NCBI RefSeq assembly: GCF_001548055.1
Contig: NZ_AP014724.1
Coordinates: 186,001 to 250,000 of the forward strand
Direction of reading: 5' to 3'
DNA from: Sulfurospirillum cavolei
Lineage (GTDB): Bacteria; Campylobacterota; Campylobacteria; Campylobacterales; Sulfurospirillaceae
Length of the DNA: 64,000 bases
Shown here: piece after piece, positions 39,262-55,730 of the stretch
How the letters are laid out: every line of letters begins with the position of its first letter
How positions within the stretch are numbered: the first letter of the stretch is position 1
The notes under the pieces: model-generated
The model's input: the letters and a program-made list of their open reading frames with translations, nothing else
Told to the model about the DNA's origin: nothing
The model's database searches: none
Translations under genes and position numbers: made by a program

Positions 39262-40342
39262 GCGTCGGCTCTAGAAAATAGCGAATATCTTTAGGGGCGA
39301 TCGCCAATGTGATCGGGCTTTGTTCTCGAATCGCGTCGCGCAGTAAAAGCTTGTGCGGCAGATCGAGCAGTAAAACGTTTTCCAATAAACCGTTAATCGA
39401 GACGAAAAGCCGGCAAAAGCTCCCTAAAAACGTCATCTTAAGCACGATACCTTCGATGATATTTTCCGCTTCGGCGTCGTAGAGTTTAATGTCTTCGGGA
39501 CGAATCAGCAGTTTTGCGGCTTGATCTTCAACGGGGAGGGCGTTTTCTTCCAGATGCACGCTAAACGAAAGCTTACCGACGCTAAAAAGATTTTCGCCTC
39601 GATAAAGGGCATTGAGAAGATTGATTTTACCGATAAAATCCGCTACGAAGAGCGTTTTTGGATGACGGTAAATCTCTAAAGGCGTTCCGATTTGCTCAAT
39701 CACGCCGTGGTTCATCACGACGATTTTGTCGGCGATGCTTAACGCTTCTTCTTGATCGTGCGTGACCATGATCGTCGTAATGCCGAGGGTTTTTTGCAGT
39801 TCCCGAATCTCTTGTCGCAGGTGTTCGCGCACCCGTGCGTCTAATGCCGAAAGCGGCTCGTCCAGCAACAACAAGGAGGGCTTGGTCGCGATGGCTCTGG
39901 CAAAAGCGACGCGCTGTTGTTGTCCGCCGCTGAGTTCGCTGGGGTATTTCTCTTCGCTACCGCTTAGTCCCACCAACGCCAAAAGCTCTTTGACGCGCTT
40001 TTTCGTCTCCTTTTTTTCCATCCCTTTTTCCCGCAATCCGTATCCGATGTTTTTCGCGACGGTAAGGTTGGGAAAGAGGGCATAGCTTTGAAAGACGATA
40101 CCGTAGTCGCGTTTGGAAGGCGGAAGCTGCGTTACGGTTTTGCCGTACTGGACGATTTCGCCCTCATCGCAACTCTCCAGCCCCGCGATAATGCGAAGCA
40201 GCGTTGTTTTACCGCAACCGGAAGGGCCTAAAAAGCAGACCAATTCACCTTTTTTAACTTCTAAATGAATCGCCTCAAGAGCGCGGAAGGTTTCAAAGCG
40301 TTTGGAAACATTGTAAATGGCAAGAGCCGTCGTATCGGACAC
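39254..40342 (-). CDS. 2-aminoethylphosphonate ABC transporter ATPase
   Basis: A 362-aa ABC ATPase with Walker A GPSGCGKTTLLRI near residue 38, Q-loop IVFQSYALFPNLT, signature LSGGQQQRVAFARAIA near 140, Walker B LLLDEPLSALDA, and the H-loop MVTHDQEEA near 195. The C-terminal ~130 residues form a TOBE/OB-type regulatory domain (LLIRPEDIKLY near 275). It is of the PotA/FbpC/PhnT class. Operon context indicates phosphonate import. It overlaps the permease gene. Confidence 0.88.
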   Translation of the reverse strand: MSDTTALAIYNVSKRFETFRALEAIHLEVKKGELVCFLGPSGCGKTTLLRIIAGLESCDEGEIVQYGKTVTQLPPSKRDYGIVFQSYALFPNLTVAKNIGYGLREKGMEKKETKKRVKELLALVGLSGSEEKYPSELSGGQQQRVAFARAIATKPSLLLLDEPLSALDARVREHLRQEIRELQKTLGITTIMVTHDQEEALSIADKIVVMNHGVIEQIGTPLEIYRHPKTLFVADFIGKINLLNALYRGENLFSVGKLSFSVHLEENALPVEDQAAKLLIRPEDIKLYDAEAENIIEGIVLKMTFLGSFCRLFVSINGLLENVLLLDLPHKLLLRDAIREQSPITLAIAPKDIRYFLEPTHA

Positions 40343-40386
40343 GTTTTTTCCTTACGCATCGGGGAAAAATTCCCCGTTAGCGTCTG

Positions 40387-41406
40387 TTATTTTTTGGGTT
40401 CGGATTTGGATTCGTAGCGTTTAGACCACTCTTTGAGAATGCTCTCTCTGTTTTTTGCCGACCATGCAAAGTCGTTGTCGATCAGCATCGAAGCGTAGTT
40501 GGAAGGGATAAATTCAATCGGTTTGGAAAGCCCTTGATACGCGACGACGGCAAAGTTTTCGGCGTAAAGTTTGTTCGCGTCTTCTCCCGTTGCCCAGTCG
40601 ACGAAGGTTTTAGCGGTTTTGAGGTTTTTCGTTCCTTTCATGATCGCCGTGGCTTCCAAATCCCAGCCTAAACCCTCTTTGGGGAAAACGACGGCAATCG
40701 GCGCGCCCTCTTTTTTAGACTTGGCGGCACGGTATTCGAAGCTGATACCGATGGGAAATTCGCCCGATGCCGCCATTTTGCACGGTTTGGAACCCGAATG
40801 GGTGTACTGACCGATATTGTCGTGGAGTTTGTCCATATACTCCCAGCCTTTTTGTTCGCCGAAGATTTTAAGCCAAGCGGTAACGTCTAAAAAGCCCGTG
40901 CCCGAACTTGCGGGATTGGGCATAACGATTTTGCCTTTATAAACGGGGTTCGTTAAATCTTCCCAACTCGTAGGAATCGGTAGGTTTTGTTTTTTAGCTT
41001 CCACTTCGTTGACGCAAATCGCACTGCCCCATACGTCGTTGCCGACCCATGCCGGAGGTGTTTTCGTGTCTTTGAATTTGGCGTCAATGTGTTTGAGTGC
41101 CGCGGGTGCGTACGGCTCAAGCATACCGTTTTGCTCTAAGAGTACCAAACTGGTCGCGGCGGTTCCCCAGACGACGTCGGCTTGAGGATTTTCTTTTTCG
41201 GCAAGGAGTTTAGCGGTGATGATACCCGTGGAATCACGTACGATTTTGACTTCGATGTCGGGTTGCGCTTTTTTGAAAGCTTCTAAATAGGGCTTAACTT
41301 GATCAGACTCCAACGCGGTGTAAACCGTGATGCTCTCTTTTGCCGCGAACATGTGCGTCGCCAACATTAACCCCGTTACTGCCAAAATACTTTTTTTGAG
41401 TACCAT
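40387..41406 (-). CDS. 2-aminoethylphosphonate-type periplasmic binding protein
   Basis: A 339-aa extracellular solute-binding protein (family 1/FbpA-like) with signal peptide ending near THMFA. The mature part opens KESITVYTALESDQV, followed by AEKENPQADVVWGTAATSLVLLE and the hinge region NPASSGTGFLDVTAWL near residue 165, as in PhnS/FbpA proteins. The neighbouring phnW and phnX make 2-aminoethylphosphonate the likely ligand; Fe3+ binding of the FbpA kind is the main alternative. Confidence 0.86.
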   Translation of the reverse strand: MVLKKSILAVTGLMLATHMFAAKESITVYTALESDQVKPYLEAFKKAQPDIEVKIVRDSTGIITAKLLAEKENPQADVVWGTAATSLVLLEQNGMLEPYAPAALKHIDAKFKDTKTPPAWVGNDVWGSAICVNEVEAKKQNLPIPTSWEDLTNPVYKGKIVMPNPASSGTGFLDVTAWLKIFGEQKGWEYMDKLHDNIGQYTHSGSKPCKMAASGEFPIGISFEYRAAKSKKEGAPIAVVFPKEGLGWDLEATAIMKGTKNLKTAKTFVDWATGEDANKLYAENFAVVAYQGLSKPIEFIPSNYASMLIDNDFAWSAKNRESILKEWSKRYESKSEPKK

Positions 41407-41468
41407 CGTTTCCCCTTTGGGTATAAATTATCGTAGCGACATCCTAACGCGAGATCGCCACAAATTGG

Positions 41469-42002
41469 TTACCGTAACCGTTTGGTAACGATAGCCCTGC
41501 TTGTTTGAAAAAGAATGTAACTGTAAATGACGTTTGTCACGATAAGTCCGACAAATACGACCGTGCGCTCGTGCTCATACCATGCTACATGTAAGAAAAA
41601 AAGATTGGCGACGAAGATCAAGGCGTAGTGTAAAAAGCTGACGTCTTGAGGGGAGAGGGCACGGTAACTTTTGTACGCTTGCGCGATGCCGCCGATGAGG
41701 TTGAACGAGCCGAGCAAGGCTACGGCAAACACGCCCAAATCTTTTTTGGAAAAAGCGACGCGACGCGCGTGTTTGTAGATGTATGCAAAGGTGAGCGTGT
41801 GTAAACCAAGCTCCAAGATTTTCGCCGTACCGATCGTGCTTTTTGCCCACGCGATGTAGCTCAAAAGCGTGATAAACGTGACGAGATAGCCGTTTAAGGC
41901 GATCCCGTCGCTTTGTTTGGTGCGAAAGATTTTGTAGAGTTGCGCAAAGTATGCTAAAAAAACGAAACTAAAGCCGATCTCTAGGGCATAAGGAATTACC
42001 AA
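41469..42002 (-). CDS. PQ-loop (SWEET-like) membrane protein in the phosphonate operon
   Basis: A 177-aa hydrophobic protein with about six membrane helices in two halves. A PQ-loop-like motif occurs at the same place in each half: [17 protein letters not shown] (from residue 20) and [17 protein letters not shown] (from residue 107), 87 residues apart, with Ala-Gln in place of Pro-Gln. This is the pattern of PQ-loop/SWEET-type transporters. The gene lies between phnW, which it overlaps by 7 bp, and the binding-protein gene. I know of no described role for such a protein in phosphonate use. Transport of a substrate or product is inference. Confidence 0.6.
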
Positions 42003-43132
42003 AAAATAGCCTCTTGTACCGCTTTTAGCAAGCGCGTAATGTCTTCGGGAAAAACGTGACCGATCGTGCCGATGCGAAAACTTTCGACATGTGAGACTTT
42101 CCCGGGGTAAATCACGAAGCCTTTTGCTTTGAGGCGCGCGTAAAAGGTCTGAAAGTCGTACGAAGCACTTTTAGGACTGTAAAAACTCGTAATAATAGGA
42201 CTTTGCAAGGCTTTCTCCACCACGCATTCAAAGCCCAAGGCTTCCATACCTTCGACCAAAAGGCGTTGGTTGGTGCGGTAACGCGCATATCGCGCCGCGA
42301 CGCCGCCTTCGTCTTCAAGTTCGCACAAAGCTTCTGCAAAAGCGCGCACGACGTGGGTCGGCGACGTAAAACGCCATTTGCCGCCGCCGTTTTCCATTGT
42401 CGCGTATTGTTCGTACGCATCAAGGCTCAAAGAGCGCGCATTGCCCTGACATGTCGCTAAGGTCGTCTTTTTAAAGAGCATAAAGCCAAATCCCGGAACC
42501 CCTTGAATGCACTTGTTGGAGCTTGAGATCAACACGTCGGCGTCCAACGCGTCAAGGTCGATTTCGATGCCGCCGAAACTGCTCATCGCATCGACGATCA
42601 ACAGTTTGTGGTGCGCTTTAACGATGCGCGCGATCTCGACAATGGGATTTAAAATGCCCGTCGTTGTTTCGCAATGTACCACGGCGACGGCACGGATAGA
42701 CGGATCGTTGCAAAGCAGGTGTTCAAGGGCTTCGAGCGAAAACGTCGTCGTCTCTTCAACGTTACATGTAAGGCACGGAATTTTGGCGTACGAAGCGATT
42801 TGCGCGATGCGTTCGCCGTACGCGCCGTTGGTTAAGACCAGCACTTTCGCGTCGATCGGCGGAAGAAGCGTCGTCACGGCGGACTCGACGCTAAACGTGC
42901 CGCTTCCTTGCATCAACACGGCGGTATAAGCACCGCTTTTGGACGCCAAAGCGACCAAACGGGAGCGAATCTCCTGTACGACGTCGTTGTACTCCTTGTC
43001 CCACGTACACCAATCTTTCAGTAAAGCCGCGCGAACACGTTTACTCGTGCTTAAAGGACCGGGTGTTAAAAGAAGGTATGGGTTGTCCGGTATGAGTGTC
43101 GGATCGATCGTATTTAGGCATGAATGCGGCAT
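41996..43132 (-). CDS. phnW: 2-aminoethylphosphonate-pyruvate transaminase
   Basis: PhnW converts 2-aminoethylphosphonate and pyruvate to phosphonoacetaldehyde and alanine. The 378-aa class V aminotransferase begins with [18 protein letters not shown], has [11 protein letters not shown] near residue 75, [13 protein letters not shown] near 180 and the PLP lysine in [16 protein letters not shown] near 210. It overlaps phnX by 19 bp upstream and the PQ-loop gene by 7 bp downstream, so the operon is tightly coupled. One TTACATGTAA copy lies in its coding sequence. Confidence 0.94.
42762..42771. repeat. TTACATGTAA palindrome (in phnW)
   Basis: Perfect copy in the coding sequence, encoding part of LTCNV on the minus strand. 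Confidence 0.9.
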
Positions 43133-43929
43133 GGTTTTTCTCCGTTTTTGATCTTTTCTTCGATGCGTTCAAGAACCTCCAACGCGTCCCAAATACCGTC
43201 GATGACGTAGTGCGCTCCGGCATTTTCCAGCTTCTCTTTCGCTTGGCGGCGTTTTTCGTCCAAAACGGATTTGGGAAGGTGCTCGTACGCGTCGTGCGAG
43301 ATGCCCGTTTCGTTGCCGCTCAACGCCACACCGATGCTCCAACACCCCGCGTTTAAGCCCTCACGTATATCGCTTAAGGTGTCGCCGATTTTCACGATGG
43401 AACTTAACGGATAGATTTCTAATTCGATGGCGTTTTTGTAGATCATAAAAGGGTGCGGACGTCCGGGAAGATAAGCCGATGGGCTCACGTAACAATCCGG
43501 TTTGTAACCGTGTTTTGCCGCTTCGCGCGTCACGACGTCCATCATCGAAGCGGTATATCCCGTCGTAGAACCAAGCTTTATCGAGCGTTTTTTCAACGTT
43601 TCGGCAAACGCCACCGCACCTTTGATCGGCACGCTATGGCTTGCTAAAACGTCAAAAAGTGCCGGTTCGAAATACGCGTAAATCGCGCGCGCGTCCTTTT
43701 CGTCCGGAAAGCGTCCGAACTGCTCCGAAAAACGCTCTTTTGTCAACTCTAAAATTGCTTGGGTATGGTCAAACTTAAGCATTCCCATAAACGTCCGAAT
43801 CTCTTCAAAATTCACGCTAAACCCGAAACGATCGAACGCTTCGGCAAACGCCGCAACCGGAGAGAGCGACCCGAAATCCACCGTCGTCCCCGCCCAATCG
43901 CAAATAACCCCTTGAATCCCTGATTTCAT
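43114..43929 (-). CDS. phnX: Phosphonoacetaldehyde hydrolase
   Basis: PhnX splits phosphonoacetaldehyde into acetaldehyde and phosphate. The 271-aa HAD-fold protein has the nucleophile motif [13 protein letters not shown] near residue 10, the Schiff-base lysine in [10 protein letters not shown] near 52, [12 protein letters not shown] near 128 and the acidic motif [13 protein letters not shown] near 185. It is the first gene of the minus-strand phosphonate operon; AAGGGG lies 7 nt before its ATG. Together with PhnW it releases phosphate from 2-aminoethylphosphonate. Confidence 0.95.
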
Positions 43930-44106: not shown

Positions 44107-47061
44107 ATGACCAAAGAAGCACAAATCGAACAAAACTTCATTCGAAAATTAAGCGATTTAAAGTACGTTTACAGAGATGACATTCGTGATAAACAATCCC
44201 TACATAACAATTTCCGTCAAAAATTTCAAGAACTCAACCAAGTGCATCTAAGCGATGCCGAGTTTGCGCGATTGATGGACAGCATCATCACGCCCGATGT
44301 TTTCACTTCCGCTAAAATTTTACGTACAAAAAACACCTTCATCAGAGACGATGATACGCCTTTAGATTACACGCTTGTCAATATCAAAGATTGGTGCAAA
44401 AACAGTTTTGAAGTGATTCATCAGCTCCGTATCAACACGGACAACAGTCATCACCGTTACGATGTCATTTTGCTGATTAACGGCGTGCCTGTGGTGCAAG
44501 TTGAGCTTAAAAACTTGGAAATTAGCCCACGACGTGCAATGCAACAAATCGTTGATTATAAAAACGATGCGGGAAACGGCTACACCAAAACGCTCCTCTC
44601 TTTCATTCAACTCTTCATTATCAGCAATCAAACGAACACATGGTACTTTGCCAATAACAATACAACCCATTTTAGTTTTGATGCCGATGAGCGATTTTTA
44701 CCCATCTACAAATTTGCCGACAAAGACAACAACAAAATAACCCATCTCGATAGCTTCTCAGAGCACTTTTTAAGCAAGTGTGTCTTAGGCGAGATGATAA
44801 GCCGTTACATGGTGCTTGTTGCCGTGGAGCAAAAGCTTTTGATGATGCGCCCGTATCAGATTTATGCGGTCAAAGCCATCGTGGATTGCATTCATGAAAA
44901 CTGCGGTAACGGCTACATCTGGCACACTACGGGAAGCGGTAAAACCTTGACCTCGTTTAAAGCCTCAACGCTTCTCAAAGACAATCCCGACATCGAAAAA
45001 TGCCTCTTTGTCGTTGATAGAAAAGACTTAGACAAACAAACCAGAGAAGAGTTTAACCGATTTCAAGAAAATTGCGTCGAAGAAAACACCAATACCGAAG
45101 CACTGGTTAAAAGACTTCTATCATCTGACTATGCCGATAAAGTCATCGTGACGACGATCCAAAAATTAGGACTCGCCCTTGATGATACGAACAAAAAGAA
45201 CTACAAAGAGCAGTTAAAACCTCTTAGCGATAAACGCATCGTTTTCATCTTCGATGAGTGTCATCGTTCGCAATTTGGCGAAAACCATAAAGCCATCAAA
45301 GCATTTTTTCCCAAAGCGCAACTGTTCGGTTTTACGGGAACGCCTATTTTTGAAGAAAATGCCGTCCAAAAGCAGGTCGAAGAGACTGAAAAAACATTCA
45401 TTACCACCGAAGATGTCTTTAAAAGAGAACTGCACGCCTATACCATCACGCATGCCATTGACGATGAAAATGTTTTACGCTTTCACATCGACTATTATAA
45501 GCCAGACGCTCAGGTTTCTAACGGTTCTCCTATCACGCAAAAAGCCATCGTTGAGGCGATTTTGGAAAAACATGAGGGCGCGACATCGGGGCGAAAGTTT
45601 AACGCTATTTTAGCCTCTGCTTCCATTAACGATGCCATAGAGTATCACAAACTTTTCAAAGCATTGCAAGCTGAAAAAGTAGCTCAAAATAGCGAATACA
45701 CACCGCTTAATGTTGCGTGTGTTTTCTCTCCCCCTGCTGAGGGTAACAAAGACATTAAACAGCTCCAAGAAGACTTAGACCAAGAGCGCAAAGACAACGA
45801 AGAAAACCCTAACGAGAAAAAAGAGGCGTTAAAAGCCATCATCGCAGACTACAACGCACGCTATGGCACAAACCACACCATCAACACGTTTGATCTCTAC
45901 TACCAAGACGTGCAAAAGCGCATTAAAGATCAAAAATACACCAACAAAGACTACGCGCACAAAAACAAAATCGACATCGTCATCGTGGTCGATATGCTCT
46001 TAACGGGCTTTGACTCCAAATACCTCAATACCCTCTACGTCGATAAAAATCTCAAATACCACGGGCTCATTCAAGCCTTTTCACGCACCAATCGCATCTT
46101 AAACGACACTAAACCCTATGGCAATATACTCGATTTTAGAGGGCAACAAAAAGCCGTGGAAGACGCCATCGCTCTGTTTTCAGGCAAGTCGTCAAAACCT
46201 GCCAAAGAGATATGGCTCGTTGATGCGGCTCCAAAAGTCATCGACACTCTCAGTCACGCCATGCAAGCACTAGATACCTTTATGACCTCGCAAGGACTCA
46301 GTGCAAAGCCTGAAGCCGTGGCAAATCTCAGAGGCGATGAAGCCAGAGGGCAGTTTATAAACCTTTTCAAAGAAGTGCAACGCCTTAAAACCCAACTCGA
46401 CCAGTACACCGACCTAAACGACGAGCATAAAAAACGCATAGAAAGCATCATCCCTTTAGATACACTAAGAGCATTTAAGGGTATGTATCTCGAAACTGCT
46501 GCACGCCTTAAGGAAAAACAAGGCAAAAGCGAAGCACCAAACAGTACCCTAGAACAGCTTGACTTTGAGTTTGTGCTCTTTGCTTCAGCGGTGGTGGACT
46601 ATGACTTCATCATGCGCCTCATCGCCAAATACACCCAAAGCACCAAAAAGCACAAGATGACCAAAGAACAACTGATGGGCATCATCGAGTCCGATGCGAA
46701 GTTCATCGATGAAAAAGAGGAGATTCGCTCTTACATCGACACCCTAGAAGTGGGTGCGGGTCTGAGTGAGGACGCCATCAAAAAAGGCTACGAAGCTTTT
46801 AAAGCAGAGCTTGCAACCAAGCAACTTGACGCCATCGCCAAGCGTCATGGCATCGACAAAGAAGCGTTGCATACGTTCGTCGAGCGCATCATGCACCGTA
46901 TGATTTTCGATGGGGAACTTTTAAGCGACCTCTTAGCACCTCTTGAACTGGGCTGGAAAGCACGAGCACACAAAGAGCAAGAACTTATGGAAGAACTCGC
47001 ACCCTTTTTACGAAAATTGGCGGGAGAGAGCGATATATCGGGGTTAAAAGCCTATGAGTAA
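44107..47061 (+). CDS. hsdR: Type I restriction enzyme R subunit
   Basis: HsdR is the DNA translocase and nuclease of a type I restriction-modification system. The 984-aa protein has the N-terminal nuclease with the D...ExK pattern YDVILLINGVPVVQVELK at about residues 118-135, then SF2 helicase motifs: Walker A TTGSGKT near 275, DECHRS near 382, GFTGTPIF near 410 and later MLLTGFDSKYLNTLY and QAFSRTNR near 640-665. The C-terminus is a long helical HsdM/S-interaction region. It overlaps hsdS by 8 bp. It contains no copy of the TTACATGTAA palindrome. Confidence 0.96.
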   Translation: MTKEAQIEQNFIRKLSDLKYVYRDDIRDKQSLHNNFRQKFQELNQVHLSDAEFARLMDSIITPDVFTSAKILRTKNTFIRDDDTPLDYTLVNIKDWCKNSFEVIHQLRINTDNSHHRYDVILLINGVPVVQVELKNLEISPRRAMQQIVDYKNDAGNGYTKTLLSFIQLFIISNQTNTWYFANNNTTHFSFDADERFLPIYKFADKDNNKITHLDSFSEHFLSKCVLGEMISRYMVLVAVEQKLLMMRPYQIYAVKAIVDCIHENCGNGYIWHTTGSGKTLTSFKASTLLKDNPDIEKCLFVVDRKDLDKQTREEFNRFQENCVEENTNTEALVKRLLSSDYADKVIVTTIQKLGLALDDTNKKNYKEQLKPLSDKRIVFIFDECHRSQFGENHKAIKAFFPKAQLFGFTGTPIFEENAVQKQVEETEKTFITTEDVFKRELHAYTITHAIDDENVLRFHIDYYKPDAQVSNGSPITQKAIVEAILEKHEGATSGRKFNAILASASINDAIEYHKLFKALQAEKVAQNSEYTPLNVACVFSPPAEGNKDIKQLQEDLDQERKDNEENPNEKKEALKAIIADYNARYGTNHTINTFDLYYQDVQKRIKDQKYTNKDYAHKNKIDIVIVVDMLLTGFDSKYLNTLYVDKNLKYHGLIQAFSRTNRILNDTKPYGNILDFRGQQKAVEDAIALFSGKSSKPAKEIWLVDAAPKVIDTLSHAMQALDTFMTSQGLSAKPEAVANLRGDEARGQFINLFKEVQRLKTQLDQYTDLNDEHKKRIESIIPLDTLRAFKGMYLETAARLKEKQGKSEAPNSTLEQLDFEFVLFASAVVDYDFIMRLIAKYTQSTKKHKMTKEQLMGIIESDAKFIDEKEEIRSYIDTLEVGAGLSEDAIKKGYEAFKAELATKQLDAIAKRHGIDKEALHTFVERIMHRMIFDGELLSDLLAPLELGWKARAHKEQELMEELAPFLRKLAGESDISGLKAYE

Positions 47062-48316
47062 GACGATGAAAAATATACCCAAAGTGCGCTTTCCTGAGTT
47101 TCGAGATACGCCTGCGTGGGAGGAAAAAAAACTAGGTGAAATAAGTACCTATGTGGATTATAGAGGACGAGCTCCTATTAAAACGGAAATAGGTTATTTC
47201 TTAGTAACAGCCAAAAATATTAAAAAAGGATTCATTGATTACAACTGTTCAAAGGAATATGTGGCAGAAGATGATTATTTAAATGTAATGAGTAAAGGAT
47301 TACCTGAAATTGGGGATATTTTATTTACAACCGAAGCACCCTTAGGAAATGTCGCTTTAGTAGATAACAAAAATATTGCACTTGCACAAAGAGTAATAAA
47401 ATTTAGAAACAAAGAAATGCTTTCAAATATTTATTTACTTCAATATATGCTTTCAGATGTTTTTCAAAAAGCAATATTTTGTAAATCAATTGGATCAACT
47501 GTTCAAGGAATTTCAGGAAAAGAATTACAACAAATTAAATTATTGATCCCCTCACTTAAAGAGCAACAAAAAATTGCGGAGTGTTTAAGCTCACTTGATG
47601 CGCTGATTTTGGCGCAAAGTAGTAAAGTCGAAGCGCTCAAAGCGCATAAAAAAGCCTTGATGCAACAGCTTTTTCCCGCCGAGGGCGAAACCACCCCCCG
47701 CCTCCGCTTTCCTCAATTTCAAAACGCCTCCGAGTGGGAGAAAAAACCGTTAGAAAATTTCTTTGATTTTTTACGAGGTAGTTTACTTTCAAAAGCGGAT
47801 ATTGTTCAGAATGGTGTAAGCAAATGTATTCATTACGGCGAATTATTTACTATATACAAAGAAAAAATATCTGAGATAAAATCATCTACAAATCTTGAGA
47901 ATGGACAATTTAGCCAAAATGGTGACATCTTAATGCCTAGTTCAGATGTAACTCCCGAGGGATTGGCAACAGCGAGTGCAATATTTGAAACTGGAGTTAT
48001 CATCGGCGGTGATGTGAATCTTTTGAGACCTAAAAACCAAATCAATTCCTTGTATATATCGTATTTATTGAATTTTAGTAAAAAAGAAATCATGAAGTTG
48101 GTTACAGGTACAACTGTAAAACATATATATAATAAAGATATTGCCAAACTTGAAATAAGAATACCGCAACAACTAGAAGAACAACAAAAAATCGCCGATT
48201 GTCTTAGCTCTCTTGATGCACTGATTTTGGCGCAAAGTAGCAAAGTCGAAGCCCTAAAACAACACAAAAAAGCGTTAATGCAACAACTTTTCCCTACATG
48301 TAAGGTCACTTCATGA
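47054..48316 (+). CDS. hsdS: Type I restriction enzyme specificity subunit
   Basis: HsdS sets the DNA target of the methylase and restriction complex. The 420-aa protein is two similar halves. Each has a lead (VRFPEFRDTPAWEEKKLGEI; LRFPQFQNASEWEKKPLENF), a divergent AT-rich target-recognition domain, and a conserved helix with the shared text SSLDALILAQSSKVEAL.HKKALMQQLFP. Two recognition domains imply a bipartite site. The repeated helices are also long direct repeats at DNA level, which would permit exchange of half-specificities. The stop overlaps the ATG of the rhuM remnant. Confidence 0.95.
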   Translation: MSKTMKNIPKVRFPEFRDTPAWEEKKLGEISTYVDYRGRAPIKTEIGYFLVTAKNIKKGFIDYNCSKEYVAEDDYLNVMSKGLPEIGDILFTTEAPLGNVALVDNKNIALAQRVIKFRNKEMLSNIYLLQYMLSDVFQKAIFCKSIGSTVQGISGKELQQIKLLIPSLKEQQKIAECLSSLDALILAQSSKVEALKAHKKALMQQLFPAEGETTPRLRFPQFQNASEWEKKPLENFFDFLRGSLLSKADIVQNGVSKCIHYGELFTIYKEKISEIKSSTNLENGQFSQNGDILMPSSDVTPEGLATASAIFETGVIIGGDVNLLRPKNQINSLYISYLLNFSKKEIMKLVTGTTVKHIYNKDIAKLEIRIPQQLEEQQKIADCLSSLDALILAQSSKVEALKQHKKALMQQLFPTCKVTS

Positions 48317-48450
48317 ATGAAAACAACATCATCATCTGCAACACCGATGACGGTAGAACTTCCGTTTCTCTTTTAGCCAAAGATGGCATGACGTGGCTGA
48401 ATCAAGCTCAGATAGCAAAAAAAGGAATGTACAAAAATGAGCATAACTAG
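48313..48450 (+). pseudogene. Truncated rhuM 5' remnant
   Basis: A 45-codon frame overlapping the hsdS stop (ATGA). Its first ~35 residues (NIIICNTDDGRTSVSLLAKD, then WLNQAQIA) align with the start of the complete RhuM protein at 50065. A 30-bp stretch is identical in DNA (48359-48388 and 50120-50149). Similarity ends at about 48418, where the AlbA_2 leader begins. This marks where a rhuM gene once directly followed hsdS. Confidence 0.85.
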
Positions 48451-49906
48451 AAGTAACGACTATGTTATATCTCTCATTAAAGAGTTGATTAAACAGCCAA
48501 ATGAAACGGAATGGTTGGAGTTTAAACACAACAATGATGATAAAGAGATGATAGGCGAATATATAAGTGCCTTATCAAACTCGGCAGCACTCAACAGTAA
48601 AACAAATGCCTATATGATTTGGGGAGTTGATGATGCAACACACAAAATACTTGGAACTACTTTTAAGCCATCGGCGACAACCAAGGGCAATGAAGCTTTA
48701 GAAAACTGGCTATTAAAGCTTCTAACTCCAAAAATAGATTTTAAATTTTATGAAGTAACGATAGATGAGAAGGAGGTGGTATTGCTAGAAATAGCACCTG
48801 CCAATATCAACCCTGTTACTTTCAGCGGGGTGGAATATATACGGCTAAACTCTCACAAAAAGAAGTTAAAAGAGTTGCCAGAAAAAGAAAGAGAACTCTG
48901 GAGAGTATTTGATCGAATTCCTTTTGAAAAGCAGATAGCAGTGGATAATATCGATGATAGTGAAGTTTTAAATTATTTAGAATATACAAAATATTTTGAA
49001 CTGTTAAACTTGCCATTGCCAGAGAACAGGCAAGCTATTTTAGAAAGCTTAACAAATGATGACCTCATAAAGAAAACAGAAAATGGAAAATACTCCATAA
49101 CAAACTTAGGGGCTATTCTTTTTGCAAAAAATTTAAATAGCTTCAGCAATCTAAAGCGCAAAGCGATTAGAGTTATACAATACAAAGATAATACAAAATT
49201 TGAAACTATAAAAGAGAGAGAGGGTACTAAAGGATATGCGGTTGGATTTGAAGGCTTAATCGATTATATAAATAATATATTGCCTTCAAATGAAGTTATC
49301 AAACAGGCATTTAGAGAAAATGTAAGAATGTATCCTGAACTTTCAATTAGAGAGATTGTAGCCAATGCCATTATTCATCAAGATTTTTTTCAAACAGGCA
49401 GTTCTGTAATGATTGAAATTTTTTCAAATCGTTTTGAAGTGACTAATCCTGGAACTCCACTTGTTGATACCGATAGATTTTTAGACTCTCCCCCAAAATC
49501 ACGAAATGAGGCTTTGGCTTCTTTTATGAGACGAATTGGTGTTTGCGAAGAGAGAGGCAGTGGTGTTGATAAAATAGTAATGCAAAGCGAAATCTATCAA
49601 CTTCCCGCTCCTATATTTGAAAAGACCAATGAGCATACGGTAGCAATATTATTTGCTCACAAAGAACTTAAAGATATGGATAAGTCAGATAAAACACGAG
49701 CTTGTTATCAACATGCGAGTTTAAGATATATTCAACGAGACTATATGACGAATACTTCTTTAAGAGAAAGATTTGACATAGATAAAAAAAATATTTCTAT
49801 GGTTTCAAAAATCATTAATGAAACGCTTAAAGAGAAAAAAATCTTTATCTATGATGAGAGTGTTGGAAGCAAAGCAAGAAAGTATATACCATGGTGGGCA
49901 AAATGA
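48437..49906 (+). CDS. AlbA_2/Schlafen-like ATP-binding protein (COG2865 type)
   Basis: A 489-aa protein with an N-terminal AlbA_2 (divergent AAA-4/Schlafen-like) domain, ETEWLEFKHNNDDKEMIGEY near residue 19 and the strand YMIWGVDDATHKILG near 58. Its middle and C-terminal part has a GHKL-type ATP-binding segment (IREIVANAIIHQDF near 305, FEVTNPGTPL near 332, GSGVDKIV near 375). A wHTH-like tail follows. Such proteins are often found inside type I R-M loci and are usually called transcriptional regulators; a defence role is possible. It sits between a broken and an intact rhuM and is AT-rich compared with hsdR. Confidence 0.82.
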   Translation: MSITRSNDYVISLIKELIKQPNETEWLEFKHNNDDKEMIGEYISALSNSAALNSKTNAYMIWGVDDATHKILGTTFKPSATTKGNEALENWLLKLLTPKIDFKFYEVTIDEKEVVLLEIAPANINPVTFSGVEYIRLNSHKKKLKELPEKERELWRVFDRIPFEKQIAVDNIDDSEVLNYLEYTKYFELLNLPLPENRQAILESLTNDDLIKKTENGKYSITNLGAILFAKNLNSFSNLKRKAIRVIQYKDNTKFETIKEREGTKGYAVGFEGLIDYINNILPSNEVIKQAFRENVRMYPELSIREIVANAIIHQDFFQTGSSVMIEIFSNRFEVTNPGTPLVDTDRFLDSPPKSRNEALASFMRRIGVCEERGSGVDKIVMQSEIYQLPAPIFEKTNEHTVAILFAHKELKDMDKSDKTRACYQHASLRYIQRDYMTNTSLRERFDIDKKNISMVSKIINETLKEKKIFIYDESVGSKARKYIPWWAK

Positions 49907-50064
49907 TTTTAAATTTGTTTCACCGTTGTTTCATTGAGAACTTAAATTTTACTGATCATAGATATAGAACAGCCTATAACAAGGGTTTTCCCGTGATAAA
50001 TTTGCTTGATGGTTGTTTGATTTACAAGAAAATAATAGCAAAATAATAGGGACAATTTTAAATA

Positions 50065-51075
50065 ATGACGAATCAAATCAAAACAAATATCATCATCTAC
50101 AACACTGCTGATGGCAAGGCTTCCGTTTCTCTTTTAGCCAAAGATGGCACGGCATGGCTGAATCAAAGCCAAATTGCCGAACTGTTTGCAACATCCATCC
50201 CAAATATCAGTATGCACATATCAAATATATTTGACGAGGGTGAGCTGGATAAAGATTCAGTTGTTAAGGATTACTTAACAACTGCGAGTGACGGCAAAAA
50301 CTACTCTGTTGCTTATTATTCCCTAGCGATGATTTTAGCCATAGGCTTTCGGGTGCGAAGCAAACGTGGTACTCAGTTTCGCCAATGGGCAAATAAAAAC
50401 CTGAGCGAATACATGATAAAAGGCTTTGTCATGGACGACGAACGCCTTAAAAATCCAGACGGCAGACCTGATTATTTCGATGAGCTTATCGAACGCATTC
50501 GTGATATACGGGCGAGCGAAAAACGCTTTTACCAAAAAGTGCGAGAGCTTTTTGCGCTGAGTCGTGATTATGATGCGAGCGATAAAGCGACGCAACTCTT
50601 TTACGCCGATACGCAAAATAAGCTTTTATTTGCCATCACCGGACACACTGCCGCCGAGATTATTACCCATCGCGCCGATGCGTCAGCTCCCAATATGGCA
50701 CTAACAAGCTTTCAAGGCTCAAAGGTGCGAAAAAGCGATATTTATACCGCAAAAAATTATTTGACCGAGGACGAACTCGATAGCCTCAACCGTTTTGTCG
50801 TTGTATTTTTAGAAACGGCAGAATTAAGAGCCAAAAACCGTCACGATCTCAGCATGGATTTTTGGAGAGAAAACATCGACCGTATTATCGAGTTTAACGA
50901 TAAAAAGCTCCTCAAAGGGCATGGAAGCATCAGCAAAGAGCAGATGGAAAAGATGGTTGAGCAGGTGTATGCCGTTTTTGATACAAAACGAAAAAAAGAA
51001 GAAGCTATCGAAGCCGATAGGCAAGACTTGGAAGAACTAAAGCAACTCGAAGAAAAGGTGACAAAGAGAAGATGA
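50065..51075 (+). CDS. RhuM-family protein
   Basis: A 336-aa cytoplasmic protein of the RhuM family (named from a Salmonella pathogenicity island gene), frequently found in type I R-M loci. The N-terminal half has a winged-helix-like segment TAWLNQSQIAELFATSIPNISMHISNIF near residue 30. The middle contains FRQWANKNLSEYMIKGFVMDDERLK near 115 and RIRDIRASEKRFYQKVRELF near 150, and the C-terminus is a charged helix. Biochemical function is not established. It overlaps hsdM by 4 bp. Confidence 0.88.
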   Translation: MTNQIKTNIIIYNTADGKASVSLLAKDGTAWLNQSQIAELFATSIPNISMHISNIFDEGELDKDSVVKDYLTTASDGKNYSVAYYSLAMILAIGFRVRSKRGTQFRQWANKNLSEYMIKGFVMDDERLKNPDGRPDYFDELIERIRDIRASEKRFYQKVRELFALSRDYDASDKATQLFYADTQNKLLFAITGHTAAEIITHRADASAPNMALTSFQGSKVRKSDIYTAKNYLTEDELDSLNRFVVVFLETAELRAKNRHDLSMDFWRENIDRIIEFNDKKLLKGHGSISKEQMEKMVEQVYAVFDTKRKKEEAIEADRQDLEELKQLEEKVTKRR

Positions 51076-52679
51076 GCGAGACAGAATACCAAGAATTAGG
51101 AAAAACCCTTTGGAGCATAGCCGATAATCTCCGTGGAGCAATGAATGCCGATGACTTTCGTGATTATATGCTCTCGTTTTTATTTTTGCGTTATCTTTCC
51201 GACAATTACGAAAGTGCCGTCCAAAAAGAACTCGGAAGTGACTACCCTGACAATACTAAAACCCCTAGCATCACACCGCTTCAGTTGTGGTATGATGCCA
51301 ACAAAAGTGATGTCAAAGCCTTTGAAGCGCAAATGCGTAAAAAAGTGCATTATGTCATAGAGCCGCGCTTTTTATGGAAAGCTATCGCTGAGATGGCTCG
51401 CACACAACACACTGACTTGTTACAGACACTAAGAGACGGGTTTAAGTATATCGAAAATGAATCGTTTGAAAGCAGCTTTCAAGGACTCTTCTCCGAAATC
51501 AATCTTGATTCTGAAAAGCTCGGAAGAAACTACGCTCAACGCAATGAAAAGCTATGCGTGATCATCCAAAAAATTGCCGATGGCATTGCGAGTTTTTCAA
51601 CCTCTAGCGATATTTTAGGCGATGCGTATGAGTATCTCATCGGTCAGTTTGCCGCAGGTTCAGGCAAAAAAGCAGGAGAATTTTACACCCCTCAACAAAT
51701 TTCGACCATTTTATCGTCCATCGTTACACTCGATAGTCAAGACCCAACAACGGGCAAAAAGAAAAAACTAGAGCGAGTCTTTGACTTTGCGTGCGGTTCA
51801 GGCTCTTTGCTTTTAAATGTTCGTAAACAGTTAGGCGCGCATGGCATCGGGAAAATCTACGGACAAGAAAAAAACATCACAACTTACAACCTTGCACGGA
51901 TGAATATGCTTCTACATGGGGTCAAAGACTCGGAGTTTGAGATACACCATGGCGACTCACTCTTAAATGACTGGGAGATGCTCAGAGAGTCAAACCCTGC
52001 TAAAAAGATGACCTTTGATGCCATCGTCGCCAATCCTCCTTTTAGTTATAGGTGGGAAGCCAATGAAACGATGGGTGAAGATTTTCGTTTTAAAAATTAT
52101 GGGTTAGCGCCTAAGTCTGCGGCGGACTTTGCTTTTTTACTGCACGGGTTTCACTTTTTAAAACAGGACGGTACGATGGCGATCATCTTGCCGCACGGTG
52201 TACTCTTTCGTGGTGGAGCAGAGGAGCGTATACGCACAAAACTCCTCAAAGATGGACACATCGACACGGTTATCGGATTGCCTTCCAATCTTTTCTTTTC
52301 AACAGGTATTCCTGTGTGTATATTGGTGCTTAAAAAGTGTAAAAAATACGATGATGTGCTTTTTATCAATGCGGCGGAACATTTTGAAAAAGGAAAACGC
52401 CAGAACCGTTTGCGTGAAGAGGACATCGAAAAAATCATCGCGACGTATCAGTACAGAAGAGTAGAAGAGAGATACGCTCGTCGTGTTTCCTTAGAAGAGA
52501 TCGAAAAAGAGGGCTACAACTTAAATATCTCTCGCTACATCAGCACTGCCGTGCAAGAAGAAGAGATCGACCTTAATGCCGTACATCAAGAACTTGCGGA
52601 AGCGGAGAAGAAAATCGTAGAGGCTTTAAAAGAACACAATGCCTTTTTAAAAGAGTTGGGACTGCCGCTTTTACCGTAA
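51072..52679 (+). CDS. hsdM: Type I restriction enzyme methyltransferase subunit
   Basis: HsdM is the N6-adenine methyltransferase of the type I complex. The 535-aa protein has an N-terminal HsdM_N helical domain, GEFYTPQQISTIL near residue 205, the SAM-binding motif DFACGSGSLLLN near 238 and the catalytic NPPF motif (AIVANPPFSYRWEAN) near 320. It overlaps the rhuM stop by 4 bp, so it is translationally coupled to an accessory gene. The order hsdR-hsdS-accessory-hsdM puts the methylase last. Confidence 0.95.
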   Translation: MSETEYQELGKTLWSIADNLRGAMNADDFRDYMLSFLFLRYLSDNYESAVQKELGSDYPDNTKTPSITPLQLWYDANKSDVKAFEAQMRKKVHYVIEPRFLWKAIAEMARTQHTDLLQTLRDGFKYIENESFESSFQGLFSEINLDSEKLGRNYAQRNEKLCVIIQKIADGIASFSTSSDILGDAYEYLIGQFAAGSGKKAGEFYTPQQISTILSSIVTLDSQDPTTGKKKKLERVFDFACGSGSLLLNVRKQLGAHGIGKIYGQEKNITTYNLARMNMLLHGVKDSEFEIHHGDSLLNDWEMLRESNPAKKMTFDAIVANPPFSYRWEANETMGEDFRFKNYGLAPKSAADFAFLLHGFHFLKQDGTMAIILPHGVLFRGGAEERIRTKLLKDGHIDTVIGLPSNLFFSTGIPVCILVLKKCKKYDDVLFINAAEHFEKGKRQNRLREEDIEKIIATYQYRRVEERYARRVSLEEIEKEGYNLNISRYISTAVQEEEIDLNAVHQELAEAEKKIVEALKEHNAFLKELGLPLLP

Positions 52680-52696: not shown

Positions 52697-52782
52697 AAAC
52701 TTTTTCGATGTTACCCACCGTTTACCGCTTTGGCGTTAGGATTGCTATCGGGAAATTCCCAAGCCAAAAACAGGAGGAGAAG

Positions 52783-53721
52783 ATGACGCTTAGCTCAAAT
52801 TCTCTTTACGGAGCGTCTTTGGGCGCAACGTACGGTTACGGTACTAAAAATTCCGCTACGTCCGAGTCCTCGTTCGCAGAAGCGTTGCTTACTTCTATGG
52901 ACAGCGATTCAAGCGGATCAATCGATAGTGCCGAGTTTAGTAGTGCCGCTTTGGCGCTTTCCATCAGTGACGAAAGTGCTATCAGTAGTGCTTTTACTGC
53001 TATGGATAGCGACGGAGACGGTTCCGTTAGTTTTGATGAGTTGAACTCTACGCTAGCGCAAATGTCTTCTTCGGCGGCAGGTTCTATGCCCCCACCTCCG
53101 CCGCCTTCATCCTCGTCTGAGCACGATACCGGATTGAGCGAAGAGGAGATGACTTCTTTATTGAAAGAGGTTTCCTCTACGGACGATCCTTTGGCAGATT
53201 TGCTCTCTTCGGTGGTCGAAAATTTTGACGCCGCCGATGCCGACGGAGACGGAAAAGTGACATTTGCCGAAGCGATGAGCTATCGTCAATCGAGCGAATC
53301 GAGCACCGATACGACGGAGATGAGTACCGTATCTGCGGCAGGAGGCACGCCCCCGCCCCCACCGCCGCCTTCTTCTTCTGAGGAAGAGGATACGGGCTAT
53401 ACCGAAGACGAACTTTCGGCTATGGCAAATGACGTTTCTTCGACAGATAGTGCTTTATCTTCGCTTTTTGAGACGCTGGCTTCGAACTTTGACGATGCCG
53501 ATGCCAACGGCGACGGTAAGGTAAGTGCCGCAGAAGCACGTGCTTATCGGGATTCACAAAACTCAAGCGATACGACGACAAATACTTCCGAGGTAGCCTC
53601 TACGCAAGAGCGTACGATGGATCGCAACGACGAGATGATGAAAACGCTTTTAGCGCAAATCATTTCGAACTATGCTTCTCAAAATACCTTGTCGGGAATG
53701 TCCGTTAGCTTTAACGCTTAG
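52783..53721 (+). CDS. EF-hand calcium-binding protein with polyproline linkers
   Basis: A 312-aa acidic, Ser-rich protein. Four EF-hand loops are readable: DSDSSGSIDSAEF near residue 44, DSDGDGSVSFDEL near 79, DADGDGKVTFAEA near 154 and DANGDGKVSAAEA near 245, each with Asp at positions 1, 3 and 5 and an acidic residue at 12. Two Pro6-Ser linkers (MPPPPPPSSS-like, then TPPPPPPPSSSEEE) separate pairs of repeats. No signal peptide is evident, so export would need another route. I start at ATG 52783, just after AGGAGGAG. A terminator separates it from the two-component genes. Calcium sensing or buffering is likely; the partner is unknown. Confidence 0.85.
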   Translation: MTLSSNSLYGASLGATYGYGTKNSATSESSFAEALLTSMDSDSSGSIDSAEFSSAALALSISDESAISSAFTAMDSDGDGSVSFDELNSTLAQMSSSAAGSMPPPPPPSSSSEHDTGLSEEEMTSLLKEVSSTDDPLADLLSSVVENFDAADADGDGKVTFAEAMSYRQSSESSTDTTEMSTVSAAGGTPPPPPPPSSSEEEDTGYTEDELSAMANDVSSTDSALSSLFETLASNFDDADANGDGKVSAAEARAYRDSQNSSDTTTNTSEVASTQERTMDRNDEMMKTLLAQIISNYASQNTLSGMSVSFNA

Positions 53722-53727
53722 TTTAGG

Positions 53728-53756
53728 AACCGCGCTCTAAGCAAGGCGCGGTTTTT
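53728..53756 (+). terminator. Rho-independent terminator after EF-hand gene
   Basis: AACCGCGC, a 10-nt loop, GCGCGGTT followed by TTTTG; an 8-bp GC-rich stem with a U-run, 6 nt after the stop codon. Confidence 0.85.
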
Positions 53757-53785
53757 GTGTTACTCTTCATTTACTTGCGCTTTGC

Positions 53786-53791
53786 TATAAT
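53786..53791 (+). promoter_or_regulatory. -10 box abutting the response-regulator start
   Basis: A perfect TATAAT ends 6 nt before the ATG, so transcription would begin about at the start codon. No ribosome site can fit between them; the mRNA is probably leaderless. Confidence 0.6.
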
Positions 53792-53797
53792 CAAGCC

Positions 53798-54478
53798 ATG
53801 ATTAAGATTTTAATGATCGAAGACGACGTCGAATTGGGACAACTGCTTCAAAACGCGCTTGAAAAAGAGCAGATCGAAACGCTCTTGACATGTACGCCTT
53901 TGGAAGGACTTGTCGCGTTGCAAAACGAAAATTTCGACGCCTTGGTGCTTGATCTCTCTTTACCGCAAATCGACGGACTTGAAATTTGCCGTATCGTTCG
54001 CGAAACGTTTCCTTCCCTTGCGATTATCATCTCTTCGGCGCGCTCCGATATGAACGATAAAGAGATGGGTTTTGCGCGGGGTGCGGACGACTTTTTACCC
54101 AAACCTTATGATCCTAGAGAATTAGCCTTTCGCTTACGGGCTATTTTACGAAGAGGCACGACGAACGGTACGCATCACGAAGCGACATGTCAAACGTTTT
54201 GTATCGACGAAGAGCGTCATACGGTCACGCGAGCCGATCGCGAGCTACGTTTAACCATGGCGGAATACGACATCGTTTCGTACATGTTAAAAAAAGAAGG
54301 GTTTGTGATTTCCAGAGAAGAATTGCTCTTAAACATCGGTTCGATCAAATACGAAAGCAGTCTAAAAAGTATCGACGTGATTATGGGTAGAATTCGCCAA
54401 AAAATAGGCGATGATCCTAAAAAGCCGCGTTTTATCGTCTCCGTAAGAGGAGTCGGGTATAAATTCGTCAATGCGTAA
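53798..54478 (+). CDS. OmpR-family response regulator
   Basis: A 226-aa two-component regulator. The receiver domain has the acidic pair IEDD near residue 8, phospho-acceptor Asp in LVLDLSLP near 52, the switch Ser/Thr in IIISSARS and Lys in FLPKPYDP near 103. An OmpR/PhoB winged-helix DNA-binding domain follows (about 128-225, with TMAEYDIVSYMLK and SIDVIMGRIRQKIG). The kinase gene overlaps its end by 8 bp. Confidence 0.94.
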   Translation: MIKILMIEDDVELGQLLQNALEKEQIETLLTCTPLEGLVALQNENFDALVLDLSLPQIDGLEICRIVRETFPSLAIIISSARSDMNDKEMGFARGADDFLPKPYDPRELAFRLRAILRRGTTNGTHHEATCQTFCIDEERHTVTRADRELRLTMAEYDIVSYMLKKEGFVISREELLLNIGSIKYESSLKSIDVIMGRIRQKIGDDPKKPRFIVSVRGVGYKFVNA

Positions 54479-55730
54479 AGCTTCTATCTTAACGCTTATC
54501 TGCATCTTTTTTGCCTTAACGTTCACGGTCATTAACATCGCTTTCATGATCGAATACAAACGCCAGCAAAGCGATTTGCGGTACTTTACGTTTCAGCGTT
54601 TTATTATGGCGGTTAAAATCTTACACGATCATCCCGACGATCAAGACGCATCACTCGCAAAACTCGGCGTCCGCATCTCTTTGCTCGATAAACACTTGCT
54701 CGATAACGTGGGAGAAAAACTCTTGGAAGATCCGTTTTTTCATATGGTACTTTTTGAAAAGCGACTCTTTTTCGTTCCCAATCCCCCTCCGCCGCCTCCG
54801 CCTTTTGCGAAAGAACATCCGATGCCTTTTGATGCGCCCATGAAACCGAGGTTTGCGGAAGAGTCGGTTTTGGAAAATACCGAAAGCTACTCACCGTACC
54901 GTTTATGGATTTTAGGCGGCGTGATTAATGTTTTATTGCTTCTTTTTTTTACGATGGTACTTCAAAAGTTACTTCGTTTGCGGCAGCTGAAAAGCGACAT
55001 TCGGCATGTGGGCGAACGAAAAAAATTTCACCCTATTGCGATTGAAAGCGAAGACGAGTTAGGCGAAATCGCGGTCGAGTTTAATCTGGCGATGGAAAAG
55101 ATTCACATGTTAAAAGAGGCGCGAACGCTTTTTTTACGCAATATCCTTCACGAACTCAAAACGCCGATTATGAAAGGGAAGCTGCTCTCAAACACTTTGG
55201 AAAACAATCAAAAACAAGAACAGATGGAGCGTATTTTCGAGCGTTTGGAAACGCTTTTGGGCGAAATGGTAAAAATTGAGAAGTTGAGTTCCAACGAATG
55301 GGTGCTCGAAGCTAAGGAGTACCGTTTGGTGGACGTGCTCGATCATGCGATGGATTTACTGTTGTGCGATACGAAACGTATTCACTTTCGCTACCACGAA
55401 GAAGCCCCTTTGATCAACGTCGATTTTGAGCTTTTTGCGACGGCGGTCAAAAACTTGCTTGACAACGCTTTGAAACATTCGAGCGAAGCGATTGAGGTTG
55501 ATGTTGACGTGCACGCTTTAACGGTGGGAAGTTACGGCGAGGCTCTTTTAGAGAGTTGTCGCGATTTTTCACGCCCGTTCAATCGCACGACGGAAGGATC
55601 GAGCAACGGCTTGGGACTTGGTTTGTACATCGCAAACGCGATTGTCGAAAAACACGGGTTTCGTTTGAGTTATCTTTACGCGGAAGGGCAGAATTTCTTT
55701 ACGATTCATTTTGATGCCTCGGTATCATAA
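54471..55730 (+). CDS. Sensor histidine kinase (ArsS-like) with polyproline periplasmic loop
   Basis: A 419-aa inner-membrane kinase. Helix 1 lies at about residues 5-25. A periplasmic domain (about 26-145) contains NPPPPPPPFAKEHP, and helix 2 is about 146-168. HAMP-like linker, H-box with phospho-acceptor His in ILHELKTPIMKGKLL near 226, N-box VKNLLDNALKHS near 328 and G-box NGLGLGLYIAN near 383 follow. The sequence resembles the ArsS-family kinases of Campylobacterota. The signal is unknown. The proline-rich periplasmic segment echoes the linkers in the neighbouring EF-hand protein. Confidence 0.93.
   Translation: MRKASILTLICIFFALTFTVINIAFMIEYKRQQSDLRYFTFQRFIMAVKILHDHPDDQDASLAKLGVRISLLDKHLLDNVGEKLLEDPFFHMVLFEKRLFFVPNPPPPPPPFAKEHPMPFDAPMKPRFAEESVLENTESYSPYRLWILGGVINVLLLLFFTMVLQKLLRLRQLKSDIRHVGERKKFHPIAIESEDELGEIAVEFNLAMEKIHMLKEARTLFLRNILHELKTPIMKGKLLSNTLENNQKQEQMERIFERLETLLGEMVKIEKLSSNEWVLEAKEYRLVDVLDHAMDLLLCDTKRIHFRYHEEAPLINVDFELFATAVKNLLDNALKHSSEAIEVDVDVHALTVGSYGEALLESCRDFSRPFNRTTEGSSNGLGLGLYIANAIVEKHGFRLSYLYAEGQNFFTIHFDASVS

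What the first reader, a model, noticed from the sequence alone, without database searches (positions are those of the whole stretch)
52783..55730. EF-hand protein and sensor kinase share polyproline segments
The EF-hand protein has two Pro6-type linkers, and the sensor kinase two genes downstream has a Pro7 run in its periplasmic loop. Such runs stall ribosomes without EF-P and can be binding surfaces. The juxtaposition with a calcium-binding protein suggests a calcium-responsive module in which the EF-hand protein is ligand, reporter or target of the two-component pair.
Basis: partly seen in the sequence, partly recalled or inferred. Interest (0 to 1): 0.5.

Follow-up and report, generated by a model that had tools for sequence, protein, structure and literature searches.

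The report
Calcium-binding protein paired with proline-rich sensor
A calcium-binding protein with proline-run linkers and the two-gene sensor-regulator pair beside it form a conserved three-gene unit with its own promoter signature, and in many distantly related bacteria the proline-rich linkers of the protein go with a proline-rich outer loop in the partner sensor.

Summary
The EF-hand protein (52783-53721) has Pro6 and Pro7 linkers; the kinase (54471-55730) has Pro7 in its periplasmic loop. These are the only genuine Pro>=6 runs in the 2.70-Mb genome. EF-hand gene, OmpR-type regulator and ArsS-family kinase form a conserved cassette: EF-regulator order in 22 of 22 EF-bearing relatives, all three genes in 21 (the 22nd is cut by a contig end), and in 10 of 11 polyproline-EF loci of a second family. 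A 34-bp promoter signature (TTAC-N7-TTAC, 11 bp, -10 box) occurs exactly twice in the genome: before the EF gene and before the regulator. Among 60 genomes, 50 of 55 such sites lie at these genes or at a second EF-hand gene. So the regulator very probably activates itself and the EF gene. In 74 named loci, 23 of 34 kinases partnered with a polyproline EF protein have a Pro>=4 sensor run, against 1 of 11 partners of EF proteins without one and 0 of 29 control kinases. Calcium response, EF export and physical contact were not tested. Best reading: a private two-component system whose dedicated target is an EF-hand protein that probably acts back on the proline-rich sensor loop. New variant of a known kind.

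The parts
52709..52742 (+). EF-gene promoter signature TGTTAC-N7-TTAC-N11-TANNNT (two TTAC half-sites 11 bp apart, -10-like TAGGAT); predicted response-regulator site
   Evidence: conserved in relatives; one of only two matches in the 2.70-Mb genome
52783..53721 (+). EF-hand protein, 312 aa, no signal peptide or membrane segment; three EF-hand blocks joined by two polyproline linkers; conserved C-terminal tail
52900..52935 (+). EF-hand loop 1 (residues 40-51)
53005..53040 (+). EF-hand loop 2 (residues 75-86)
53089..53106 (+). Pro6 linker
53236..53271 (+). EF-hand loop 3 (residues 152-163)
53350..53370 (+). Pro7 linker
53500..53535 (+). EF-hand loop 4 (residues 240-251)
53724..53757 (+). terminator-like hairpin between EF gene and regulator gene (weak evidence)
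   Evidence: 13-pair stem; the scan as a whole is not enriched over shuffles; folding inconclusive
53758..53791 (+). second promoter signature, before the regulator gene (predicted autoregulation site), -10 TATAAT
   Evidence: the other of the two genomic matches
53798..54478 (+). OmpR-type response regulator, 226 aa
54471..55730 (+). ArsS-family sensor histidine kinase, 419 aa; its start overlaps the regulator stop
   Evidence: NF038389, 351.5 bits, cut-off 250
54783..54803 (+). Pro7 run in the unstructured part (about residues 104-133 of the model) of the kinase periplasmic loop

Best explanation
The three genes are one signalling unit. Step 1 (supported by conservation, not by experiment): the kinase and regulator form a nearly private two-component system; the phosphorylated regulator binds TTAC-N7-TTAC direct repeats near the -35 position and activates its own operon and the EF-hand gene (and, in some relatives, a second EF-hand gene). 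Step 2 (inferred): the acidic, Ser-rich EF-hand protein leaves the cytoplasm by a route that needs no Sec signal, perhaps through its conserved C-terminal tail, and binds calcium. Step 3 (inferred from correlation): in or beyond the periplasm it acts back on the kinase through the proline-rich, unstructured sensor loop, giving calcium-tuned feedback, much as the periplasmic proline motif of EnvZ is needed for contact with MzrA. My confidence is about 0.85 for step 1 and 0.4 for steps 2 and 3 together; the figure below is for the whole.
For: Co-occurrence: an EF match is in 22 of 60 genomes and a kinase match better than 1e-100 in the same 22 and in 0 of the other 38. Order EF-regulator in 22 of 22 and EF-regulator-kinase in 21 of 22 (G003 cut by a contig end), amid changing neighbours. 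Second family: 10 of 11 polyproline-EF loci linked, 0 of 3 EF loci without polyproline beside this pair. Promoter signature: 2 sites in the own genome; 55 sites in 60 genomes = 24 EF promoters (one at a contig end in G001, one left in a deletion scar in G010), 21 regulator promoters, 5 second EF-hand genes, 5 others; reversed-pattern control 10. In 11 genomes of the second family 20 sites, all at EF (11) or regulator (9) promoters, control 2. The unlinked EF gene of G414 keeps the site. In G010 the EF gene, regulator and most of the kinase are gone together. Kinase loop: Pro>=4 in 18 of 21 triad kinases of the first family and 8 of 10 of the second. Named loci (74): partner-kinase sensor Pro>=4 in 23 of 34 with polyproline EF, 1 of 11 without (Fisher 0.0011), 0 of 29 control kinases from eight of the same genomes (3.6e-9); the sensor parts of the kinases outside Campylobacterota show no detectable similarity to this one, and the three of them that were typed have CpxA-like transmitters. 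Precedents: EnvZ-MzrA (PMC6023141, passages), BfmR activating the EF-hand gene efhP (PMC8025907, passages), EF-hand protein ALG-2 binding Pro-rich peptides with calcium (PMC5037681 and PMC4346919, abstracts in the listing).
Against: No Sec signal or membrane segment in the EF protein, so how it would meet a periplasmic loop is unknown. Four paralogous kinases with no EF neighbour still carry PPPP (L063-L066). 11 of 34 polyproline-EF partners lack a Pro>=4 run, among them the triad kinase of G028 (longest run 2); in G414 the kinase has only PPP although its EF protein keeps Pro6. Loci within a clade are not independent, so the P values overstate. In 11 of 26 EF upstream regions outside Campylobacterota a sigma-54-like element is seen, so step 1 does not generalise as such. 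No calcium or binding data.
Confidence: 0.5

Rival explanations
1. Output only: the two-component system switches on the EF-hand protein as a calcium buffer or exported structural protein, with no feedback; the two proline-rich segments bind some third partner or each fulfil a separate role.
For: The promoter evidence needs no contact between the proteins; no export signal was found; EF genes without polyproline are also under the same promoter signature in five genomes.
Against: The polyproline of the EF protein and that of the partner sensor co-vary across unrelated sensor domains, which a pure output does not explain.
Confidence: 0.35
2. Low-complexity drift or simple flexible spacers: proline runs arise by codon-repeat slippage and carry no joint function.
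For: Run length and position vary strongly between orthologues; long and short EF forms differ by an internal block; the loop is predicted to be unstructured.
Against: Such runs are otherwise absent from the own genome; proline richness of the loop is kept while its sequence changes; 0 of 29 control kinases have one.
Confidence: 0.25
3. Translation control: both runs stall ribosomes and so couple kinase and EF-hand levels to elongation factor P activity.
For: Consecutive prolines are known stall sites and CadC copy number is set that way (PMC6023141, passages).
Against: In EnvZ the proline motifs acted through protein contacts, with little effect on levels (PMC6023141, passages); it does not explain why the kinase run sits in the sensor part of unrelated kinases.
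Confidence: 0.1
4. The kinase senses acid, as Helicobacter pylori ArsS does, and the EF-hand protein is part of an acid or envelope response unrelated to calcium.
For: The kinase passes the ArsS-family cut-off; ArsS senses pH through its periplasmic domain (PMC2736386, passages).
Against: The periplasmic histidines of ArsS are not conserved even in orthologues of related genera (PMC2736386, passages); several kinases per genome match here, so family membership does not fix the signal.
Confidence: 0.2

Closest known systems
BfmRS and EfhP of Pseudomonas aeruginosa (PMC8025907, PMC11559002; passages read)
   Same: A response regulator strongly activates a nearby EF-hand gene and its own operon (top ChIP peaks; efhP 11,268-fold).
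   Different: BfmR has a large regulon (172 genes); no polyproline is mentioned for EfhP in PMC11559002 (0 occurrences); homology to the present proteins was not tested.
EnvZ-MzrA of Escherichia coli (PMC6023141; passages read)
   Same: A periplasmic proline motif in a sensor kinase goes with, and is needed for contact with, an accessory protein.
   Different: Two prolines against four to eight; MzrA is a membrane protein, not an EF-hand protein.
ArsRS of Helicobacter pylori (PMC2736386; passages read)
   Same: Kinase family by NCBIfam model NF038389.
   Different: No EF-hand partner or proline-rich loop is mentioned in the passages seen ('proline' 0 occurrences); signal of the present kinase unknown.
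XopAW-type EF-hand proteins (NCBIfam NF041410)
   Same: Nearest named EF-hand family by model score.
   Different: 59.8 bits against a cut-off of 120; type III export not shown.
ALG-2 penta-EF-hand protein (PMC5037681, PMC4346919; abstracts in listing)
   Same: Shows that an EF-hand protein can bind Pro-rich peptides in a calcium-dependent way.
   Different: Mammalian protein; used only as a precedent.

Membership tests
ArsS family sensor histidine kinase (NF038389) | Full-length model score over curated cut-off | tested here: met
   351.5 bits, cut-off 250; a second-family kinase 351 bits
ArsS family sensor histidine kinase (NF038389) | Response to acid pH | not testable with these tools
   needs expression data
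OmpR/PhoB response regulators | Receiver domain plus Trans_reg_C domain | tested here: met
   PF00072 and PF00486 over cut-off
OmpR/PhoB response regulators | Direct-repeat sites about 11 bp apart before target promoters | tested here: met
   (binding itself not shown)
EF-hand calcium-binding proteins | Canonical 12-residue loops with acidic ligands and E at position 12 | tested here: met
   four loops
EF-hand calcium-binding proteins | Calcium binding | not testable with these tools
   needs titration
XopAW family (NF041410) | Model score over curated cut-off | tested here: not met
   59.8 bits, cut-off 120
Lanmodulin (NF053806) | Model score over cut-off; proline at loop position 2 (recalled) | tested here: not met
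   19.1 bits, cut-off 135; loop position 2 is S or A
EnvZ-MzrA-like accessory-protein control | Physical contact through the periplasmic proline motif | not testable with these tools
   only co-variation shown
BfmRS-EfhP | Homology of EF-hand protein and kinase to EfhP and BfmS | not tested
   compared by function only

The most novel reading that the evidence does not exclude
A widespread proteobacterial signalling unit in which an exported EF-hand protein reads out calcium and binds a proline-rich loop of its partner kinase, its own polyproline linkers acting as built-in mimics of that loop; the loop arose or was kept in unrelated sensor domains because the EF-hand protein is the common ligand.
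Probability: 0.2. Interest if true: 0.85.

Novelty: new variant of a known kind. Interest (0 to 1): 0.6.

Why it matters
EF-hand proteins are found in many bacteria but few have a known signalling partner. This cassette gives a defined pair with a private promoter, a repeated sequence feature on both sides and natural controls (EF proteins without polyproline, kinases without it, a whole-unit deletion), so the question whether bacterial EF-hand proteins act as calcium-dependent ligands of sensor kinases becomes directly testable. It also offers a possible reason for costly polyproline runs in sensor kinases.

Tried and rejected
Sigma-54 promoter for the window's EF gene: TGGCGTTAGGATTGC fits in the window, but the GG is not kept in orthologues; dropped in favour of the direct repeat plus -10. 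Upstream ATG at 52708 as start: rejected, it lies at the promoter signature and a ribosome site stands before 52783. XopAW and lanmodulin membership: scores below cut-off. Terminator between EF and regulator genes: one good hairpin, but the scan is not enriched and the fold is inconclusive. The fold search with the kinase model listed histidine-kinase cores and other kinase-like photoreceptors among its top 50 and told nothing about the sensor loop; kinase model mean pLDDT 74, EF model 63, both from shallow alignments. Literature: ten searches showed no paper describing this unit among the titles and abstracts listed; two searches returned zero papers and the library holds only open-licence papers, so absence in print is not established.

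Rows and subsets: alignment A1 used 16 of 22 EF proteins, A2 17 of 21 triad kinases plus 3 of 6 paralogues. In one search a kinase was found in 34 of 44 polyproline-EF loci and 11 of 30 others; loci without a kinase were not counted in the sensor comparison. Of the 11, five (L172, L182, L183, L188, L191) look like true family members with a linked pair, and none of the five has a Pro>=4 sensor run. The 29 controls are ORFs from the 30 best HisKA loci of 8 genomes. In one search matches outside the locus were listed in other genomes and not checked for reading frame; the 'only runs' claim is made for the own genome alone.

Full report
1. Observation. The window is bases 186001-250000 of a 2,698,323-base genome. 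Named records place it with Sulfurospirillum: the closest EF homologue is from Sulfurospirillum sp. UBA4058, 86% identity, and the contig of one same-genus relative (G023) has the length of the S. diekertiae JPD-1 chromosome. The EF-hand gene (52783-53721), an OmpR-type regulator gene (53798-54478) and an ArsS-family kinase gene (54471-55730) follow each other on the + strand. The EF protein has Pro6 and Pro7, the kinase Pro7 between its two membrane helices. A scan for six CCN codons over the genome gave four places: these three and one antisense to a long ORF.

2. Linkage. Among 60 genomes (own included), 22 have an EF match and exactly these 22 have a kinase match better than 1e-100; the best kinase match in the other 38 is 1e-55 or weaker, that is, other kinases. 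EF then regulator, same strand, in 22 of 22; the kinase follows in 21, and in the last (G003) the contig ends inside the regulator gene. Two of the 22 belong to other genera of the family. Neighbouring genes differ (by eye: potassium-transport genes, restriction genes, transporters and others). In one relative without the cassette (G010) the EF promoter signature is fused to the last part of the kinase gene, so the unit was lost in one piece. In 397 genomes of the phylum 26 have an EF match at 1e-12, 11 of them in a second family; one contig there (G176) has the length of a Sulfuricurvum record. Of 14 EF loci fetched there, 11 have polyproline and 10 of these 11 are the same three-gene cassette; the 3 without polyproline are not beside this pair. 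The exception, G414, has the EF gene and the pair on different contigs; its kinase has only PPP.

3. Control of the EF gene. Upstream of the EF start in all 21 first-family and 11 second-family regions aligned lies TGTTAC-N7-TTAC, two half-sites 11 bp apart, with a -10-like hexamer 11 bp further on; in most genomes the same lies before the regulator gene. The 34-bp pattern occurs twice in the own genome, at these two places. In the 60 genomes it occurs 55 times: 24 at EF promoters, 21 at regulator promoters, 5 before a second EF-hand gene elsewhere (G012, G013, G015, G017, G023) and 5 elsewhere; the reversed pattern occurs 10 times. In 11 genomes of the second family it occurs 20 times, all at EF (11) or regulator (9) promoters; reversed 2. 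This is what a nearly private regulon of an OmpR-type regulator looks like. It is inference from conservation; binding was not shown. Related pairs without an EF gene have similar sites before other genes (L063-L068), so the site type belongs to the regulator subfamily.

4. The two proline-rich segments. The EF protein is predicted as three EF-hand blocks separated by two unstructured proline linkers, then a helix and a low-confidence tail. The tail ends in a similar Ser-rich, Ala-ending pattern in many distant members. In the kinase model the stretch of about residues 104-133, holding the Pro7, has no regular structure. In orthologues the loop sequence changes but stays proline-rich: Pro>=4 in 18 of 21 triad kinases of the first family and 8 of 10 in the second. 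A scan of the species-genome collection gave 74 named loci. EF proteins with Pro>=4 had a regulator gene within 3.5 kb in 37 of 44 cases, those without in 13 of 30. Where a kinase beside that regulator could be identified, its sensor part had Pro>=4 in 23 of 34 against 1 of 11; control kinases from eight of the same genomes 0 of 29. Outside Campylobacterota the sensor parts share no detectable similarity with this one and the three transmitters typed are CpxA-like. Against a strict rule: four paralogous kinases without an EF neighbour carry PPPP, and 11 of 34 partners lack a run.

5. Mechanism. Shown by conservation: one unit, one regulator, EF gene as main target. Inferred: export of the EF protein and feedback on the sensor loop. 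EnvZ gives the closest tested parallel, where a periplasmic proline motif is needed for contact with MzrA and co-occurs with it (PMC6023141, passages); BfmR-efhP shows that such a regulator can have an EF-hand gene as its top target (PMC8025907, passages); ALG-2 shows that an EF-hand protein can take Pro-rich peptides (abstracts). Whether calcium matters is open.

6. Verdict. New variant of a known kind (two-component system with accessory protein).

Noticed in passing
L053, L054, L120, L121, L128: A second, short EF-hand gene without polyproline, followed by an ApbE-family gene (PF02424 in L053; the others by resemblance), carries the same promoter signature in five relatives far from the cassette.
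   Followed up: partly
L153, L159, L160, L162, L164, L165, L166, L171, L173, L174, L184, upstream of the EF gene: Sigma-54-like element TGGCCGATNNNTTGC (with small variants) in 11 of 26 upstream regions examined outside Campylobacterota; 2-7 such sites per genome in four genomes.
   Followed up: partly
L067 4158-4185, L068 7200-7216: A paralogous regulator-kinase pair lies beside a porin-like gene and a FAD-binding reductase-like gene, with TGTTACCAAAA repeats between ('porin-like' by eye).
   Followed up: partly
L136 1501-1779 (G010): Deletion scar: EF promoter signature joined to the last part of the kinase gene.
   Followed up: yes
window 44107-52679: Type I restriction-modification genes with a RhuM-family gene (PF13310) directly before the EF gene; the restriction names are by eye. 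Similar neighbours occur at an EF locus of the second family (L109).
   Followed up: no
window 37588-43929: By eye, a phosphonate uptake and breakdown cluster; names recalled, no family search run.
   Followed up: no
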